A stretch of 39,628 bases of DNA. Origin: an uncultured bacterium. GTDB taxonomy: Bacteria > Cyanobacteriota > Vampirovibrionia > Gastranaerophilales > Gastranaerophilaceae. The notes under the pieces were generated by a model. The model searched no databases. It had not been told where the DNA came from and saw only the letters and a list, made by a program, of their open reading frames with translations. The DNA lies in NCBI GenBank assembly GCA_949286885.1, contig CASEEG010000089.1, positions 1 through 39,628 of the forward strand, read 5' to 3'. This document shows, in pieces, positions 33,137 to 39,628 of this stretch. Numbering within the stretch: the stretch's first letter is position 1; every line of letters starts with the position of its first letter. The translations under genes were made by a program, and so were the position numbers.

Positions 33137-33164
33137 CAAATAAAAGTTTTGGAGAGTGAAGTTA

Positions 33165-34160
33165 ATGCTAAATGGCAAAACAATTTTAATTACGGGTGGC
33201 ACTGGAAGTTTTGGAAAAAAATTTACGGAAGTTGTTTTGAATAAATTTCCCGATGTAAAAAAAATAATTATTTTTTCACGTGATGAGTATAAGCAGTTTA
33301 TAATGCAGAATATGCCGGAGTTTAAGCCCTGGGCAGATAAATTGAGATTTTTTATCGGTGACGTTAGGGATAAAGAAAGACTCTACAGGGCTTTTGAAGG
33401 TGTTGATATTGTCGTACATGCCGCAGCTTTGAAACAAGTACCTGCTTGTGAGTATAACCCTTTTGAAGCTGTTAAAACTAACGTTATGGGCGCTCAAAAT
33501 GTTATAGATGTATCAATTGACAGAAGAGTAAAAAGAGTTGTTGCTTTGTCAACCGATAAAGCTTGTGCGCCTATTAACCTTTATGGTGCGACAAAGTTAT
33601 GCTCGGATAAATTGTTTATTGCTGGAAATTCGTATTGCGGAACAAAAGAAACTCGTTTTTCTGTTGTCAGATATGGTAATGTTGCAGGTTCTCGCGGGTC
33701 TGTAATTCCGTTTTTTCAAGAACTTGTTAAGGAAGGTGCAAAAGAACTCCCAATCACCGATATGAATATGACAAGGTTTTGGTTAAAACTTGAACAAGCT
33801 GTTGAAATGGTACTTGAGGCTATTAAAAGCATGCAAGGTGGCGAGCTGTATGTTAAGAAAATTCCATCCATGAGAATGCCGGATTTGGCTCGTGCAATTG
33901 CTCCCGGTTTAAAAATAAAAGAGATTGGCATACGTCCCGGGGAGAAAATTCATGAACAAATGATAACAAAGGAAGACGCTAGAAATACTATTGACATGGG
34001 CGAGTATTATATAATACTTCCAGAAATTAATATGGAACATATAAACTACAGATATTCCAATGCCAAGACTGTTGATGAAAATTTTGAGTATCATAGCGGC
34101 AATAATGACAGATGGCTCAGCGTTGATGACATGAGAAAACTTATAGAAGAGCTGCAATAA
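33165..34160 (+). CDS. pseB: UDP-GlcNAc 4,6-dehydratase (5-inverting) PseB
   Basis: PseB begins pseudaminic acid synthesis by dehydrating and C5-inverting UDP-GlcNAc. The extended-SDR NAD(P) motif is ILITGGTGSFGKKF. Other signatures are VHAAALKQVPACEYNPFEAV, a YGATKLCSDKL Tyr-Lys pair, RYGNVAGSRGSVIPFF and DMNMTRFWLKLEQAV. From the ATG at 33165 the protein is 331 residues. A GTG at 33156 overlaps its own ribosome site and is rejected. It is the first gene of the cluster, with its own promoter. Confidence 0.95.
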   Translation: MLNGKTILITGGTGSFGKKFTEVVLNKFPDVKKIIIFSRDEYKQFIMQNMPEFKPWADKLRFFIGDVRDKERLYRAFEGVDIVVHAAALKQVPACEYNPFEAVKTNVMGAQNVIDVSIDRRVKRVVALSTDKACAPINLYGATKLCSDKLFIAGNSYCGTKETRFSVVRYGNVAGSRGSVIPFFQELVKEGAKELPITDMNMTRFWLKLEQAVEMVLEAIKSMQGGELYVKKIPSMRMPDLARAIAPGLKIKEIGIRPGEKIHEQMITKEDARNTIDMGEYYIILPEINMEHINYRYSNAKTVDENFEYHSGNNDRWLSVDDMRKLIEELQ

Positions 34161-34206
34161 TAAACTTTTATAAAAGTATTTTTTGATAATGAACGGATGT
34201 GTCAAT

Positions 34207-35307
34207 ATGAAAACTTACAATTACGGTAAACAGCATTTGGATTTTTCAGATATAATGTCTGTAGTAGGGGTTTTAAGGTCTCCTTTTTTGACCTGTGGTC
34301 CTAAGGTGAAAGAATTTGAGTCTGCACTTTGTGCTTATACTGGTTCAAAGTATTGTGTTGCCGTTAACAGTGCAACTTCTGCTTTGCATATTGCAATGTT
34401 GGCGTTGGATATAAAATGCGATGATGAGGTTATTACAAGTCCAATTACTTTTTTGGCAAGTGCAAATTGTGCAAGATATTGCGGAGCAAAGGTTAAGTTT
34501 TGCGATATAGAAGAAACTACTGCAAATATTGATCCTTTAAAAATTGAGAGTTGTGTAACGAATAAGACTAAGGCAATAATTCCTGTTCACTTTGCGGGAC
34601 AGTCTTGCGATATGGAAGAAATTTACAAAATTGCTAAAAAATATAATTTAAAAGTTGTCGAAGATGCTGCTCATGCAATAGGTTCTGAGTACAAGGGAAA
34701 GAAGGTCGGTTGCTGCGAATTTTCTGACATGACAGTTTTTTCTTTTCATCCTGTTAAAACAATCACGACCGGAGAAGGCGGTGCTGTTTGCACAAATAAT
34801 GAAGAACTTTATAAAAAATTACTCGCTTTTAGATCCCATGGAATGCACAAAGATGGTGCTATGAAAAATAATTGGGAGTATGAGATGCGCGAGTTAGGAT
34901 ATAATTACCGTATGACCGACATTCAAGCTGCCTTGGGTGTTTCCCAATTAAAGAAATTAAACTTTTTCAAGAAGAGAAGACGCGAAATTGTTGATTATTA
35001 TAACAACAATCTTGGCTTGCCTCATCTTATCGAAAAAGAGTTTTCAAATGCTTGTTTTCATTTGTATCCGGTGATGGTAAGAAATCGTGCGGAATTTTAT
35101 AAGAGGGCCCGTGCCGAGAAATTAAATCTTCAGGTACATTATATCCCTGTTCACACTCAGCCGTATTATAAAGAGCAAGGTTACAATTGGGGAGACTTTC
35201 CTAATGCTGAAATATATTATAAAAAATGCATTTCTCTTCCCTTATACCCTGATTTAAAGAATTCAGATTTAGATGAAATAATAAGAAGGATTAAGGAAAT
35301 TTTATAG
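34207..35307 (+). CDS. pseC: UDP-4-amino-4,6-dideoxy-sugar aminotransferase PseC
   Basis: PseC aminates the PseB product at C4 using PLP and glutamate. It belongs to the DegT/DnrJ/EryC1 family. NSATSALHIAMLALD, SPITFLASANCARYCGA, VVEDAAHAIGSEYKGKKVG, FHPVKTITTGEGGAV (PLP lysine in HPVK) and NYRMTDIQAALGVSQ are the signatures. The ATG at 34207 gives a family-like N-terminus (YGKQHLDFSD) with a CGGA site; TTG 34183 and ATG 34189 in frame are less likely. It abuts the aldo/keto reductase gene with no gap. Confidence 0.94.
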   Translation: MKTYNYGKQHLDFSDIMSVVGVLRSPFLTCGPKVKEFESALCAYTGSKYCVAVNSATSALHIAMLALDIKCDDEVITSPITFLASANCARYCGAKVKFCDIEETTANIDPLKIESCVTNKTKAIIPVHFAGQSCDMEEIYKIAKKYNLKVVEDAAHAIGSEYKGKKVGCCEFSDMTVFSFHPVKTITTGEGGAVCTNNEELYKKLLAFRSHGMHKDGAMKNNWEYEMRELGYNYRMTDIQAALGVSQLKKLNFFKKRRREIVDYYNNNLGLPHLIEKEFSNACFHLYPVMVRNRAEFYKRARAEKLNLQVHYIPVHTQPYYKEQGYNWGDFPNAEIYYKKCISLPLYPDLKNSDLDEIIRRIKEIL

Positions 35308-36168
35308 ATGAAATTAGGATTAGGAACAGTTCAATTTGGTTGTAACTATGGTATTTCAAATACGAAAGGTCAAGTTGCTTTTGATGAAATACAAAAAATT
35401 TTAGATTACGCAATAGAGGTTGGTATTGACACTATAGATACTGCAAGTTTGTACGGCAATAGTGAAAATATTTTGGGGAAATTTGATTTAAGTAAATTTA
35501 ATGTAATTACTAAAACTATAAAAGTTGATAAAACACTCGACAGAAATACGAATCTGGAAAGATTTAAAGAGGCATTCTATAAATCTCAAAAAAACTTGGG
35601 ATATATAAAACTTTACGGATTAATGTTTCATGAAGCTAATGATTTATTAAGTCAAAATGCATATGAATTGTGGGATTTAGTATCTGACTTTAAAGATAAA
35701 GAATATGTTGAAAAGATTGGAGTTTCAGTATACACACCGGAACAACTAACTCAAATTATTGATAAATTTGATATTGATATAGTTCAATTACCATTAAATC
35801 TCTTAGACCAAAGATTTGTATACTTAATGAAAGAATTAAAACAAAAAAACATAGAAATCCATACACGTTCAACTTTTTTACAAGGACTATTATTGATGGA
35901 AAATCATGAGATTAATTCATATTTTGAAGAAATAAAACCTTTGTTGAAAACAATTCCTGAACCAAAATTAGCTTATGCATTACAATTTGTAAACAATATA
36001 AAAGAAGTAGATAAAATTATTGTAGGTACAACTTGTGTAAATGATTTAAGAGAAATAACTAAAGCTATAAAACAAGATATTAAATATATTGATTATAATA
36101 AGTATAAAACTTTGGATGAAAGATTTATTCTTCCTCAAAATTGGAAAATAAAACAGATGCAGAAATAA
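35308..36168 (+). CDS. Aldo/keto reductase in the nonulosonate cluster
   Basis: A 286-residue aldo/keto reductase barrel. The catalytic tetrad is readable: Asp44 and Tyr49 in DTASLYG, Lys69 in VITKT and His108 in LMFHEA. It would reduce a sugar keto or aldehyde group with NADPH. Such a gene is not part of the core six-step pseudaminic pathway but recurs in surface-sugar clusters, where it may tailor the sugar. The ATG follows the pseC stop by one or two bases without a good ribosome site. Base composition is far lower in GC than pseC (33 of 120 versus 44 of 120 in samples I counted by hand). Confidence 0.85.
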   Translation: MKLGLGTVQFGCNYGISNTKGQVAFDEIQKILDYAIEVGIDTIDTASLYGNSENILGKFDLSKFNVITKTIKVDKTLDRNTNLERFKEAFYKSQKNLGYIKLYGLMFHEANDLLSQNAYELWDLVSDFKDKEYVEKIGVSVYTPEQLTQIIDKFDIDIVQLPLNLLDQRFVYLMKELKQKNIEIHTRSTFLQGLLLMENHEINSYFEEIKPLLKTIPEPKLAYALQFVNNIKEVDKIIVGTTCVNDLREITKAIKQDIKYIDYNKYKTLDERFILPQNWKIKQMQK

Positions 36169-36208
36169 ATAAAAGATTATGTTACTATTAGATAATTAAG
36201 GAGAAAAG

Positions 36209-37234
36209 ATGGAAATTAGAAAATGTAAAAAATGTGGTTTTATTTTAGGAACAAGACCTAATATTTCTGACGTAGATGGTGTTTGTACACCGTGTATTAA
36301 TGCAGAAAAGAAAAAAAATATTGATTTCAAGAAAAGGCAAGCTTGGCTAACTCAATATATAAAAGATAATAAAGGAAATGGTGAATATGATTGCCTTGTT
36401 GCCGTTTCTGGCGGTAAAGATTCACATATGATTGTAAAACGTCTTGTTGAAAATCATGGTATAAAAAAGCCTTTGTTAGTTACATTAATGGACGAATTTA
36501 CTCCTACACAAGCTGGCATACACAATAGAAAAAATATATCAGAGCAGTTTGATTGTGATCATATTTATTATAGATTTTCACCAAAATCTTTCAGAGAACA
36601 TGCAAGAGAAGATTTTATAAATGATTGTTTTTCTCTTAAATGGTATGAGGAGAAAATTTACGCAAAGCCTTTTGAACTTGCTAAAAAATTTGGAATTAAT
36701 TTAGTTTTTTATGGTGAAAATGCTGAATTTGAGTATGGTGCAAATGAAGAACTCGAAATTTTTCATCCACTATCAGATGATGAAACAAAGGTAATATTTT
36801 TAGGCGCAATATATCCTTATAGCATTGATGATTCTTTAAAAGAAGCAAGGGAGGTTGGTTTTAAAGACTTGGATGATTTTAATGAATGGCAAAGAAGCGG
36901 ACAAATAGAAAATCATACTCAAGTTGATAGTATAGGTTATATTGTAGCGGTTTGGTTGAAGTTTATAAAGTTTGGTTTTCAAAGAGTTTCTGATATAGCT
37001 TGTCGCTATGTTAGGGATGGAAAATTAACTAGAGAACAAGCAGAATTGTTGATTAAAGAAAATGATTGGCAATTAGATAAAGCTGCAAAGCGTGATTTTT
37101 GTCAAATGGCAGGAATCACAGATAAAGAATTTGATGAAGTAATTGATCGCTTTGCTAATAGAGATTTGTTAATCAAGGATATAAATGGCAATTGGCGTAG
37201 AAAAGATTATTATGATCCTCAATGTATAAAATAG
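36209..37234 (+). CDS. N-acetyl sugar amidotransferase (PseA/WbpG-like)
   Basis: A 341-residue PP-loop ATPase of the N-acetyl sugar amidotransferase family. A four-cysteine zinc-type motif (Cys6, Cys9, Cys26, Cys29) precedes the SGGKDS ATP-pyrophosphatase loop at 67-72; YGENAEFEYG and VWLKFIKFGFQRVSDIACRY follow. Homologues (PseA, WbpG, LegG-like) use ammonia to turn an N-acetyl group into an acetamidino group on nonulosonates or uronic sugars. It probably needs HisH/HisF-like ammonia-supplying partners outside the window. AAGGAG precedes the ATG. GC content is low (32 of 120 in 36541-36660). Confidence 0.87.
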   Translation: MEIRKCKKCGFILGTRPNISDVDGVCTPCINAEKKKNIDFKKRQAWLTQYIKDNKGNGEYDCLVAVSGGKDSHMIVKRLVENHGIKKPLLVTLMDEFTPTQAGIHNRKNISEQFDCDHIYYRFSPKSFREHAREDFINDCFSLKWYEEKIYAKPFELAKKFGINLVFYGENAEFEYGANEELEIFHPLSDDETKVIFLGAIYPYSIDDSLKEAREVGFKDLDDFNEWQRSGQIENHTQVDSIGYIVAVWLKFIKFGFQRVSDIACRYVRDGKLTREQAELLIKENDWQLDKAAKRDFCQMAGITDKEFDEVIDRFANRDLLIKDINGNWRRKDYYDPQCIK

Positions 37235-37254
37235 CGAAGGTTGTTAGTTATTGT

Positions 37255-37827
37255 ATGATTTATAATAATGTATTGAACGGAAGTAAAATAAAATTACGTA
37301 TGGTTAAATTATCCGATTGTAATAGTTCCTATTGCAATTGGCTTAATGATATTGAGATAAATCAGTATCTTGAAACAAGATGGTCAATTCAAACAATAGA
37401 GAGTATTAAAGAATTTGTTAAATCAATAGAAGAAAGTTCTCATAGTTATTTATTTGCAATAATTTATGAAAACAAACATGTCGGAAATATAAAAATAGGC
37501 CCCATACAACCTATACATAAATACGCTGATATAAGTTACTTTATTGGTGAAAAGTCTGCTTGGGGTAAAGGAATCACTACTGAAGCAATAAGTTTAATTT
37601 GTGACTTTGCATTTAATATTCTTAAGTTAAATAAACTTTGTGCAGGAGTTTATGAGGATAATATTTCAAGTTCAAAAGTTTTGTTAAAAAATAAATTCAT
37701 ACAAGAAGGTATAAAAAGAAAACAATATTTAAGCGATAACTCAAGCAGTGATGGTGCTTCAGGAGTAGAGAGATACACAAATGTTTTAATGTATGGATTA
37801 TTGGCATCAGAATATCAAAAGGAGTAA
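37255..37827 (+). CDS. GNAT acetyltransferase, probable PseH role
   Basis: A 190-residue RimJ/RimL-like GNAT domain: LNGSKIKLRMVKLSDCNSSY, a WLNDIEINQYLETRW acceptor region, and ISYFIGEKSAWGKGITTEAI as the acetyl-CoA-binding loop. In pseudaminic clusters this position is filled by PseH, which N-acetylates the PseC product at the 4-amino group. That fits here but is inferred from context. ATG 37255 gives a family-like start; ATG 37222 in frame overlaps the upstream gene and neither has a strong ribosome site. Same low-GC block as its two neighbours. Confidence 0.8.
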   Translation: MIYNNVLNGSKIKLRMVKLSDCNSSYCNWLNDIEINQYLETRWSIQTIESIKEFVKSIEESSHSYLFAIIYENKHVGNIKIGPIQPIHKYADISYFIGEKSAWGKGITTEAISLICDFAFNILKLNKLCAGVYEDNISSSKVLLKNKFIQEGIKRKQYLSDNSSSDGASGVERYTNVLMYGLLASEYQKE

Positions 37828-37830
37828 AAC

Positions 37831-39159
37831 ATGAATGCTACAACTTTAAATAATAAAAAATCATTAGAATTACAACGAAAAGCAGTAAAATTGATACCGG
37901 GAATGACCCAACTTCTTTCAAAAAGACCGGACAGATATTCACGAGGGGTTTGGCCAACTTATTTTAAAGAGGCAAAAGGAATAGAAGTTGTTGATTTAGA
38001 CGATAACAGATATCTTGATTTTTCTATAGGCGGCATAGGTGCTACCGTTCTTGGGTATGCCGATGATGATGTTAATGACGCTGTAATTAGCGCGATCAAT
38101 AAGGGCAGTGCTTCAACACTTAACTGCTACGAGGAAGTTCAACTTGCTGAAAAATTATTAGAACTCCATCCCTGGGCCGATATGGCAAGGTTTGCGCGTG
38201 GCGGCGGGGAGGCAATGTCAATAGCAGTCAGAATTGCTCGCGTTGCTACAGGTAAGGATAAAATAGTATTTTGCGGTTATCATGGATGGTGCGATTGGTA
38301 TCTTGCTGCAAATTTGGGTAAAAAGGGTGCTCTTGATGATCAGTGGATAGCAGGATTAAATCCTAACGGTGTACCAAAGGGTTTGTGTGGCACGGCTATA
38401 CCCTTTTATTATAATGACATAAAAAGTTTTGAAGCTGCAGTTAATGAGGCCGGAGATGACTTGGCTGCAATAGTAATGGAGCCTATAAGGAATTTCTATC
38501 CCAACAAGGAGTTTATTGATGCAATCCATACTATGACAAAAACTAAAAAAGTCCCCCTTATCATTGATGAGATTTCGGCAGGATTCAGAATTTGCAATGG
38601 CGGTGCACATTTAAAATTAGGTTTTAATCCTGATATAGCAGTATTTTCAAAAGCGCTTGGGAATGGTTTTTGTTGTTCTGCCATAATTGGCAAAAAGCAA
38701 ATTATGGAATATGCCCAAGACGCTTTTATAACAAGCACAAATTGGACCGAAAGGGTGGGATCAGTTGCAGCTCTTGCCATGATTGATAAATTTGTAAAAA
38801 ATGATATGTCCTCACATCTGGTTAAAATAGCAGATATGGTATGGAATTGCTGGGATGAAGCAGCAAAAAAATATAATTTAGAAATTCATATAGGTGGTTT
38901 TAAGCCTATGATTCATTTTTCTTTTAATAAAAATCATGCCTGCAATATTGCCTATTTTACTCAAGAAATGCTTAAAAAAGGTTTTCTCGCAGGGAGTGGT
39001 TTTTATTCCATGTTTGCCCATAAAGAGGAACATGTTCAAAAATATAAACTTGCGCTGGATGATGTATTTAAGAGCTTATCGATTGCAATATCTCAAAACA
39101 AGGTTGAGGAGCTGTTGGAAGGCGCGCCGGCTGCAAGTGGTTTCCAGAGGATAAATTAA
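37831..39159 (+). CDS. Class III aminotransferase (glutamate-1-semialdehyde aminomutase-like)
   Basis: A 442-residue PLP enzyme of the subgroup-III aminotransferases. YLDFSIGGIGATVLGYAD, ARGGGEAMSIAVRIAR, YHGWCDWYLA, IIDEISAGFR (Asp246) and FSKALGNGF with the PLP lysine at 274 are clear. It resembles HemL, but the heme route would not need a gene here. In glycan clusters such enzymes aminate or transaminate a sugar intermediate. AAGGAG precedes the ATG. Composition returns to about 42% GC (50 of 120 in 38041-38160), unlike the three genes before it. Confidence 0.82.
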   Translation: MNATTLNNKKSLELQRKAVKLIPGMTQLLSKRPDRYSRGVWPTYFKEAKGIEVVDLDDNRYLDFSIGGIGATVLGYADDDVNDAVISAINKGSASTLNCYEEVQLAEKLLELHPWADMARFARGGGEAMSIAVRIARVATGKDKIVFCGYHGWCDWYLAANLGKKGALDDQWIAGLNPNGVPKGLCGTAIPFYYNDIKSFEAAVNEAGDDLAAIVMEPIRNFYPNKEFIDAIHTMTKTKKVPLIIDEISAGFRICNGGAHLKLGFNPDIAVFSKALGNGFCCSAIIGKKQIMEYAQDAFITSTNWTERVGSVAALAMIDKFVKNDMSSHLVKIADMVWNCWDEAAKKYNLEIHIGGFKPMIHFSFNKNHACNIAYFTQEMLKKGFLAGSGFYSMFAHKEEHVQKYKLALDDVFKSLSIAISQNKVEELLEGAPAASGFQRIN

Positions 39160-39161
39160 TT

Positions 39162-39628
39162 ATGAAAAAAATTACTATAATTCCTGCTAGAGGTGGCAGC
39201 AAGAGAATACCTAAGAAAAATATTAAAGAATTTATGGGCAAACCCATGATTGCTTACGCTATCGAAGCTGCACTGAATTCAAATATTTTCGATGAAGTTA
39301 TGGTCTCTACCGACAGTGAAGAAATAGCACAAATTGCGAAAAATTATGGCGCAAATGTTCCGTTTTTGCGTTCAAATATAACCGCAAGTGATACTGCCAT
39401 GACTTTTGATGTAATTGATGAAGTTTTGCATAAATACAAAGCGATGGGTAAGGAATTTGATTTATTGTGTTGTGTATATCCGTGCGTACCCTTTTTAAAG
39501 TCTAAAACCCTAAATGACGCTTTACAATTCATGTTAAAAAATGAAAGTGATGCTGTTATGCCCGTTTGCAAGTACCCCGTACCAATAGAATGGGCAATGA
39601 AAATTCAAAATGGAGTTCTTGTACCAAA
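39162..39628 (+). CDS. pseF: Pseudaminic acid cytidylyltransferase PseF, 3' end cut by window edge
   Basis: The N-terminal 155 residues of a CMP-nonulosonate synthetase. IIPARGGSKRIPKKNIK is the CTP-binding P-loop-like motif, and VMVSTDSEEIAQIAKNYGA, FDLLCCVYPCVPFL and DAVMPVCKYPVPIEWAM follow. PseF activates pseudaminic acid with CTP for transfer to protein or glycan; NeuA/LegF-type specificity is possible. AGAGGA precedes the ATG two bases after the aminotransferase stop. The C-terminus and probably pseG and pseI lie beyond the window. Confidence 0.9.
   Translation, partial: MKKITIIPARGGSKRIPKKNIKEFMGKPMIAYAIEAALNSNIFDEVMVSTDSEEIAQIAKNYGANVPFLRSNITASDTAMTFDVIDEVLHKYKAMGKEFDLLCCVYPCVPFLKSKTLNDALQFMLKNESDAVMPVCKYPVPIEWAMKIQNGVLVP

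What the first reader, a model, noticed from the sequence alone, without database searches (positions are those of the whole stretch)
35308..37830. Sharp low-GC block inside the nonulosonate cluster
Hand counts of G+C in 120-base samples: pseC 44 (34381-34500); aldo/keto reductase 33 (35701-35820); amidotransferase 32 (36541-36660); GNAT 34 (37561-37680); class III aminotransferase 50 (38041-38160). Composition drops at the pseC/AKR junction and recovers at the aminotransferase start. Codon use changes with it (more TTA, AGA and ATA). Three genes therefore seem to have a separate recent origin and were inserted, in frame with the operon, as a sugar-tailoring cassette.
Basis: seen in the sequence. 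Interest (0 to 1): 0.55.

Follow-up and report, generated by a model that had tools for sequence, protein, structure and literature searches.

The report
Swapped cassette in pseudaminate-type sugar operon
In one bacterium's operon for an acidic surface sugar, an AT-rich stretch of three genes marks a place where one enzyme gene was replaced by a distant look-alike and a sugar-amidating enzyme was added; gene swapping in such operons is well known, so this is a neat but largely ordinary case.

Summary
The low-GC block is real: all five hand counts are exact, and its genes form the lowest of 223 three-gene runs for synonymous GC3 in the sampled part of the genome.

Two corrections. Much of the overall GC dip is not foreign: the genes before the class III aminotransferase (AT3) dip in 7 of 7 relatives; only third-position GC is unusual. 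And it is not a three-gene insertion: all 7 relatives already carry an aldo/keto reductase (AKR) there, 3 of them a GNAT. The window holds a distant AKR (27-32% identical) instead; same-genus monophyly is rejected, p 5e-62. A PseA-like amidotransferase, in 3 of 383 family genomes, was added. GNAT ancestry is unresolved (p 0.30). AT3 has normal GC yet also conflicts with the pseB/pseC trees.

Best reading: cross-genus allele exchange in a modular nonulosonate operon, probably by recombination in conserved flanks, with an acetamidino-type product; the chemistry is inferred. In passing: PseG is not found above cut-off in 12 of 12 family genomes, whose clusters hold a TIM-barrel gene.

The parts
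33156..34160 (+). pseB, UDP-GlcNAc 4,6-dehydratase (inverting)
   Evidence: TIGR03589 529 bits, cut-off 407.75; tree with G002 and G007 of the same genus 99/95
34183..35307 (+). pseC, aminotransferase; left flank, nucleotide homology to the same-genus relatives ends at about 35294
   Evidence: TIGR03588 485 bits, cut-off 423.5; blastn to L037/L038 stops at 35294
35308..36168 (+). aldo/keto reductase, xenologous replacement of the family's own AKR; its ATG directly follows the pseC stop
   Evidence: PF00248; 27-32% to the AKR of 7 relatives, 59% to G227; tree and AU tests; residues read as the AKR catalytic tetrad D, Y, K, H (motif recalled) present in the alignment
36209..37234 (+). PseA-like N-acetyl sugar amidotransferase (PP-loop, four N-terminal cysteines)
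   Evidence: TIGR03573 203.3 bits, cut-off 203.2; SGGKDS 67-72 and C6/C9/C26/C29 invariant in 10 sequences; model pLDDT 87.8, best PDB match 8wex, TM 0.79, rmsd 8.5
37255..37827 (+). GNAT acyltransferase (ORF from 37222; probable start 37255, by comparison with relatives)
   Evidence: PF13302; PseH model 52.8 bits, below cut-off 93.1; 57-59% over the matched stretch to slot GNATs of G176/G007
37831..39159 (+). class III (glutamate-semialdehyde-aminomutase-like) aminotransferase AT3; right flank, nucleotide homology resumes at about 37847 (G007) or 37866 (G002)
   Evidence: PF00202; 75-81% to 7 relatives; blastn
39162..39628 (+). pseF, CMP-pseudaminate cytidylyltransferase, cut by the contig end
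   Evidence: TIGR03584 193.1 bits over 148 of 222 positions, cut-off 205.7
35201..37875 (.). maximum-likelihood limits of the low-GC segment
   Evidence: two-level composition scan

Best explanation
The block is one allele of a variable slot in a pseudaminate-type nonulosonate operon. The operon type in this bacterial family is pseB-pseC-AKR-(GNAT, methyltransferase or nothing)-AT3-pseF-TIM barrel-...-pseI. In the window's lineage the family AKR was displaced by a distant AKR, a PseA-like amidotransferase was added, and the GNAT came with them or was kept. The exchange probably ran by homologous recombination in the conserved flanks (pseC 3' end; AT3 onwards), from an AT-rich donor, possibly within the same family. 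Proposed chemistry: PseB/PseC make the 4-amino sugar; AKR and AT3 act as one redox/transamination unit, since every AT3 operon seen keeps an AKR in front of it even where the AKR gene was exchanged; GNAT acylates an amine; the amidotransferase turns an N-acetyl into an acetamidino group. Shown: gene content, families, composition, trees, predicted fold of the amidotransferase. Inferred: reactions, their order, the product, the recombination mechanism and the donor.
For: Seven of 7 relatives found through AT3 (8 of 288 family genomes hold it at E <= 1e-60, the window's included) carry another AKR, 68-99% alike among themselves. The window AKR used as query finds only itself in the window's assembly, although it detects the AKRs of G002 and G007 at E about 1e-31, so the old gene is gone from what is assembled. 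AKR tree 100/100 and AU tests against PseB 99/95 and PseC 94/92 with the same genus. Nucleotide homology to G007 breaks at 35294 and resumes at 37847, at gene ends. The slot contents differ among relatives: GNAT in G007, G176 and G097, methyltransferase in G002 and G117, nothing in G284 and G126. G117, of another genus, shares AKR (98%) and methyltransferase (97%) with G002, evidence of cross-genus exchange. The amidotransferase sits beside pse genes in 7 of 9 loci of other bacteria at 55-61%. Codon use of the block fits the AT-rich family member G126 best of 22 loci compared, with L051 (Mycoplasmatota) and G150 almost equal.
Against: GNAT ancestry is not resolved (AU p 0.30) and part of the GC dip is intrinsic to the slot. 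AT3 incongruence means the exchanged tract may be longer than the low-GC block, or that the same-genus relatives are the recipients. The pairing of AKR with AT3 holds in one direction only: AKRs of the window's clade occur without AT3 in nonulosonate clusters of G227 and G049. No donor with all three genes was found. No tRNA, Rfam element or strong repeat marks the edges. The assembly is fragmented (128 contigs, 88.7% complete, 5.7% contaminated), and the next contig overlaps with 3 mismatches in about 50 bases, so mixed strains are possible.
Confidence: 0.72

Rival explanations
1. The whole stretch from after pseC through AT3 and pseF came in together; the low-GC part is only its AT-rich portion, and AT3/pseF look native because their donor had ordinary composition.
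For: Window AT3 groups with other genera (91/95) and not with G002/G007; clade with G002+G007 rejected, with G117 added p 0.024.
Against: G002, G007 and G117 share nearly identical AKR and close AT3, so these may be the recipients and the window AT3 the resident copy. PseF tree unresolved.
Confidence: 0.3
2. No transfer: the slot is simply AT-rich because of the proteins it encodes and weak selection, and the AKR is a fast-evolving orthologue.
For: All 7 relatives show the overall-GC dip with the same GC12; GNAT fits the family.
Against: GC3 is low given the protein sequence. The AKR is closer to AKRs of other clusters (59% to G227) than to the slot AKRs (27-32%), which are 68-99% alike; AU p 1e-11 against a clade with all of them.
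Confidence: 0.06
3. Assembly artefact: the block belongs to another organism in the bin and was joined between conserved flanks.
For: Bin with 5.73% contamination; the contig end differs from its neighbour at 3 of about 50 bases.
Against: Two joins at exact gene ends would be needed, leaving an intact co-directional operon; the assembly holds no AKR of the family type detectable with this query.
Confidence: 0.07
4. The amidotransferase is a WbuX-type enzyme that works with HisH/HisF-like partners, not a PseA.
For: Only the WbuX family model passes, by 0.1 bit; no PseA model rang.
Against: The one HisH match in the own genome is on another contig (C42). G215 (96% complete) and G485 (82%) carry close homologues with no HisH match, while the distant WbuX-like gene of G029 has HisH next to it. 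This is not a clean divide: G030 and G031, with 35-38% homologues, have no HisH over the cut-off either. Seven of 9 loci with homologues at 55-61% hold pse genes.
Confidence: 0.15

Closest known systems
Pseudaminic acid pathway with acetamidino derivatives (Campylobacter jejuni, PMC3958885; Clostridium, PMC13317340; passages of both read)
   Same: pseB, pseC, pseF, pseI and an amidotransferase; PMC13317340 names PseA a CMP-Pse5Ac7Am acetamidino-synthase
   Different: AKR and class III aminotransferase added; PseG not found above cut-off in 12 of 12 family genomes; a TIM-barrel gene in the clusters
Vibrio sp. B9-25K2 nonulosonate cluster (PMC7371886; one section and passages read)
   Same: an aldo-keto reductase domain encoded directly after pseC in a Pse-type cluster; its di-N-acetyl product fragments unlike that of Moritella viscosa
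   Different: there the AKR is fused to an SpsF-like cytidylyltransferase, PseG is present, and no amidotransferase is described in the text read
Flagellar glycosylation hypervariable regions (Clostridium, PMC13317340, passages read)
   Same: patchy, horizontally exchanged nonulosonate genes whose tree does not follow the organism
   Different: here the exchange is followed gene by gene within one operon slot; no transposase or flagellar gene was seen among the eight proteins scanned around the block
N-acetyl sugar amidotransferase of Legionella pneumophila, PDB 8wex
   Same: fold (TM 0.79 by query length), PP-loop family
   Different: 22% identity over the structural alignment, rmsd 8.5

Membership tests
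Canonical pseudaminic acid (Pse) operon | PseB and PseC above curated cut-offs | tested here: met
   529 against 407.75 and 485 against 423.5 bits
Canonical pseudaminic acid (Pse) operon | PseI synthase | tested here: inconclusive
   own PseI homologue on contig C79, 70% to the G007 PseI; the curated model was run only on G284's copy, 481.8 against 340.25 bits
Canonical pseudaminic acid (Pse) operon | PseG UDP-sugar hydrolase | tested here: not met
   TIGR03590 over cut-off in 0 of 12 family genomes, 8 of 12 with partial sub-cut-off matches; control rings in 5 of 14 genomes, over cut-off in 2. The own assembly is 88.7% complete. Hence 'pseudaminate-type', not filed as a canonical Pse operon.
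PseH | slot GNAT above PseH cut-off | tested here: not met
   52.8 against 93.1 bits; other GNATs of pse clusters (L058, L059, L076) also stay below it, so the cut-off is strict
WbuX/PseA N-acetyl sugar amidotransferases | family model, PP-loop motif, four cysteines, fold | tested here: met
   203.3 against 203.2 bits; motifs; TM 0.79 to 8wex
PseA | acetamidino synthesis on (CMP-)Pse | not testable with these tools
   needs an enzyme assay; genomic context agrees in 7 of 9 loci
WbuX with HisH/HisF partner | adjacent HisH-like gene | tested here: not met
   the single HisH match in G000 is on contig C42; none in G215 or G485
Aldo/keto reductases | PF00248 and catalytic D-Y-K-H | tested here: met
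   E 1.1e-21; alignment, tetrad identity recalled
KidO | NF011432 cut-off 244 bits | tested here: not met
   92.6 bits
Glutamate-1-semialdehyde aminomutase | HemL equivalog cut-off | tested here: not met
   191.5 against 527.3 bits
Genomic island / mobile element | integrase or transposase, tRNA, flanking repeats | tested here: inconclusive
   no tRNA, no Rfam hit, only weak repeats in 34000-39600, no transposase among the eight proteins scanned; the other window genes were not scanned

The most novel reading that the evidence does not exclude
AKR and AT3 are a two-gene module that installs an additional amine (oxidation, then transamination) on a nonulosonate or its acyl group, and the slot between them carries exchangeable enzymes that finish that amine: acyl (GNAT), methyl, or acetyl plus acetamidino as in the window. 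In these genomes PseG is missing and the TIM-barrel protein would release the sugar from UDP. Together this would be an undescribed nonulosonate pathway whose end group is changed by gene exchange.
Probability: 0.2. Interest if true: 0.65.

Novelty: new variant of a known kind. Interest (0 to 1): 0.36.

Why it matters
It shows, gene by gene, how a surface-sugar operon is edited: a conserved core, an AKR/AT3 frame, and a slot whose tailoring enzymes change between species. It also warns that a GC dip alone misplaces both the extent and the kind of event. The missing PseG and the TIM-barrel gene make a testable biochemical question.

Tried and rejected
Simple insertion of three genes: rejected, since AKR (7 of 7) and GNAT (3 of 7) already stand in front of AT3 in relatives. 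GC dip as proof of foreign origin: rejected for overall GC, kept for GC3. Phage or plasmid carriage: no relative of AKR or amidotransferase in IMG/VR by the pattern scans, which find close relatives only; no phage record for the amidotransferase; 10 plasmid records, at most 36% identical; PHROGs gives an AKR match of unknown function and a general acetyltransferase family. Island marks: none found. Donor search: AKR best 59% in G227 (7 of 382 class genomes at E <= 1e-40, the window's own included); amidotransferase 63% in G215 and 60% in G485, there beside pse genes with no AKR or AT3 match in the stretches read; GNAT 6 of 288 genomes at E <= 1e-20, own included; no genome with all three among these hits. 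Literature for these gene sets; searches found no paper, one search found one (Vibrio), one on Legionella not pursued. Rows dropped: GNAT test without L035 and AT3 tests without L035 and L056 (long branches).

Full report
Observation. The window is contig C89 of a fragmented assembly (1.58 Mb, 128 contigs, 88.7% complete, 5.7% contamination). All five hand counts are right. The likeliest low-GC segment is 35201-37875 (27.7% against 34.5%). Against 285 genes (window plus 38 stretches of the same assembly, 7 ORFs with N dropped) the three genes rank 2nd (AKR), 1st (amidotransferase) and 6th (GNAT) lowest for GC3 given their protein sequence, and form the lowest of 223 three-gene runs, -6.9; the next non-overlapping run is -4.1. 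The background covers about 0.36 of 1.58 Mb, so other low blocks may exist unseen.

What part of the dip is unusual. In 7 of 7 related operons the genes between pseC and AT3 are also lower in overall GC than the pseB/pseC/AT3/pseF genes of the same locus (by 0.039 to 0.073; window 0.087), and first+second-position GC is the same (0.329-0.352; window 0.338). For G097 no pseC lies in the stretch read and G117's contig starts inside the AKR, so there the slot is AKR to AT3 and fewer reference genes were used. Third-position GC is what sets the window apart: 0.098 below the rest of its locus, against 0.006 to 0.034 in relatives. A vertical slot would therefore already look like a GC drop at pseC and a recovery at AT3.

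Genes. PseB and PseC pass their curated models; PseF is cut by the contig end. The AKR belongs to PF00248, and residues that I read as the catalytic tetrad are present. The amidotransferase passes TIGR03573 by 0.1 bit, keeps SGGKDS and four N-terminal cysteines across 10 sequences, and its model (pLDDT 87.8) matches the Legionella N-acetyl sugar amidotransferase 8wex at TM 0.79, rmsd 8.5. The GNAT lies below the PseH cut-off. The class III aminotransferase AT3 lies far below the HemL cut-off, so its substrate is open.

Relatives. AT3 was found in 8 of 288 family genomes, the window's included. In all 7 others an AKR of a different clade precedes AT3; these AKRs are 68-99% alike and 27-32% like the window's. 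In 5 of the 7 that AKR directly follows pseC; G097 and G117 are the exceptions named above. Between that AKR and AT3 stand a GNAT (G007, G176, G097), a methyltransferase (G002, G117) or nothing (G284, G126). None has the amidotransferase there; G007 has a distant homologue (28%) further along its cluster. G117, of another genus, shares AKR (98%) and methyltransferase (97%) with G002, so exchange between genera has happened at this slot. Nucleotide homology between the window and G007 ends at 35294 and resumes at 37847, with a weak 66% match inside GNAT.

Trees. PseB (99/95) and PseC (94/92) put the window with its genus. The AKR is separated 100/100 from the family slot AKRs; a clade with the same-genus AKRs is rejected at p 5e-62 and with all slot AKRs of the family at p 1e-11. 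GNAT cannot be resolved (p 0.30, 5 rows after L035 was dropped). AT3, which has normal GC, is rejected as a clade with G002 and G007 (p 1e-90), weakly so if G117 is added (p 0.024; 9 rows after L035 and L056 were dropped). The PseF tree is unresolved. Small trees and groups named after inspection make these p-values rough.

Amidotransferase. Close homologues (55-61%) occur in Mycoplasmatota, Victivallis, Lachnospiraceae, Campylobacter, Phascolarctobacterium and an unnamed bacterium, 9 loci in one pattern scan; 7 of the 9 loci hold pseB, pseC or pseI homologues nearby, L055 and L056 do not. In Victivallis a GNAT 47% like the window's follows it, the same pairing as here. Within the family it occurs in 3 of 383 genomes at E <= 1e-60, the window's included; in G215 and G485 it stands beside pse genes with no AKR or AT3 match. 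No HisH lies beside it, and G215 and G485 have no HisH match at all, unlike the WbuX-like gene of G029; but G030 and G031, with more distant homologues, lack a HisH over the cut-off too, so this is a weak divide.

Origin. No close donor was found in the genomes, plasmids, phages or viral contigs searched. Of 22 loci compared, codon use of the block fits G126, an AT-rich member of the same family, best, with the Mycoplasmatota locus L051 and family member G150 almost equal. That makes a family donor possible, not shown. No tRNA, Rfam element or strong repeat marks the edges. The simplest mechanism is homologous recombination in the conserved flanks; this is inference.

Continuation of the operon. 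Contig C79 begins with what looks like the missing end of pseF (about 50 bases of near-overlap, 3 mismatches counted by eye), followed by the TIM barrel, a GNAT-formyltransferase fusion, a PIG-L deacetylase and PseI. There is thus a second GNAT domain near PseI, which makes the slot GNAT more likely a tailoring enzyme than the PseH step. Adjacency of the two contigs is inferred.

Chemistry. That 8 of 8 AT3 operons of the family keep an AKR before AT3, even where the AKR gene was exchanged, argues that the two work on one substrate. Against it, AKRs of the window's clade also occur without AT3 in nonulosonate clusters of G227 and G049. Oxidation followed by transamination would fit, by analogy with two-enzyme amino-sugar routes (recalled, not tested). 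The amidotransferase most likely makes an acetamidino group, as PseA is described to do (PMC13317340, passages read). Comparable literature: an AKR domain after pseC in Vibrio B9-25K2, whose product has an unexplained fragmentation pattern (PMC7371886), and hypervariable nonulosonate loci in Clostridium (PMC13317340). Because PseG was tested and not found, I do not file the operon as a canonical Pse operon, only as pseudaminate-type.

Verdict. A real compositional block, partly explained by what kind of genes it holds. The event behind it is a gene displacement plus an addition within a frequently exchanged operon, of which the low-GC stretch is the visible part. As a kind of event this is well known; the particular gene set is a new variant.

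Noticed in passing
G000 contig C79 (L123:212-1036) and loci L035, L037, L038, L041, L052, L060-L064, L069, L075, L076, L131: PseG is over its cut-off in 0 of 12 family genomes (8 of 12 give only partial sub-cut-off matches). A PF01261 TIM-barrel gene stands in 15 of 26 loci scanned, PseG in 4 others (L051, L053, L054, L059), both in none, neither in 7 (small profiles built from 3 TIM and 2 PseG sequences of these same loci). The TIM barrel gives weak, sub-cut-off matches to endonuclease IV and the phosphodiesterase CbiR: a candidate replacement of PseG.
   Followed up: partly
L064:2-2832 (G117) and L037:1996-4916 (G002): AKR and methyltransferase are 97-98% alike between two genera, and AT3 is close too, so this segment probably moved between genera recently.
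   Followed up: partly
L070:5173-5994, L071:10148-10969, L072:4004-4840: A relative of the window AKR sits in a shared, non-glycan-looking neighbourhood in three genomes of genus g56, with the catalytic His position altered; it may be a pseudo-enzyme with another role.
   Followed up: no
L123:1134-2246 and L060:5582-7033: Gene fusions around the pathway: GNAT fused to a formyltransferase in the own genome, GNAT fused to PseI in G284.
   Followed up: no
window end 39579-39628 and G000:C79:1-50: The two contigs nearly overlap, with 3 mismatches in about 50 bases (counted by eye), which suggests strain variation at this operon in the sampled population.
   Followed up: no
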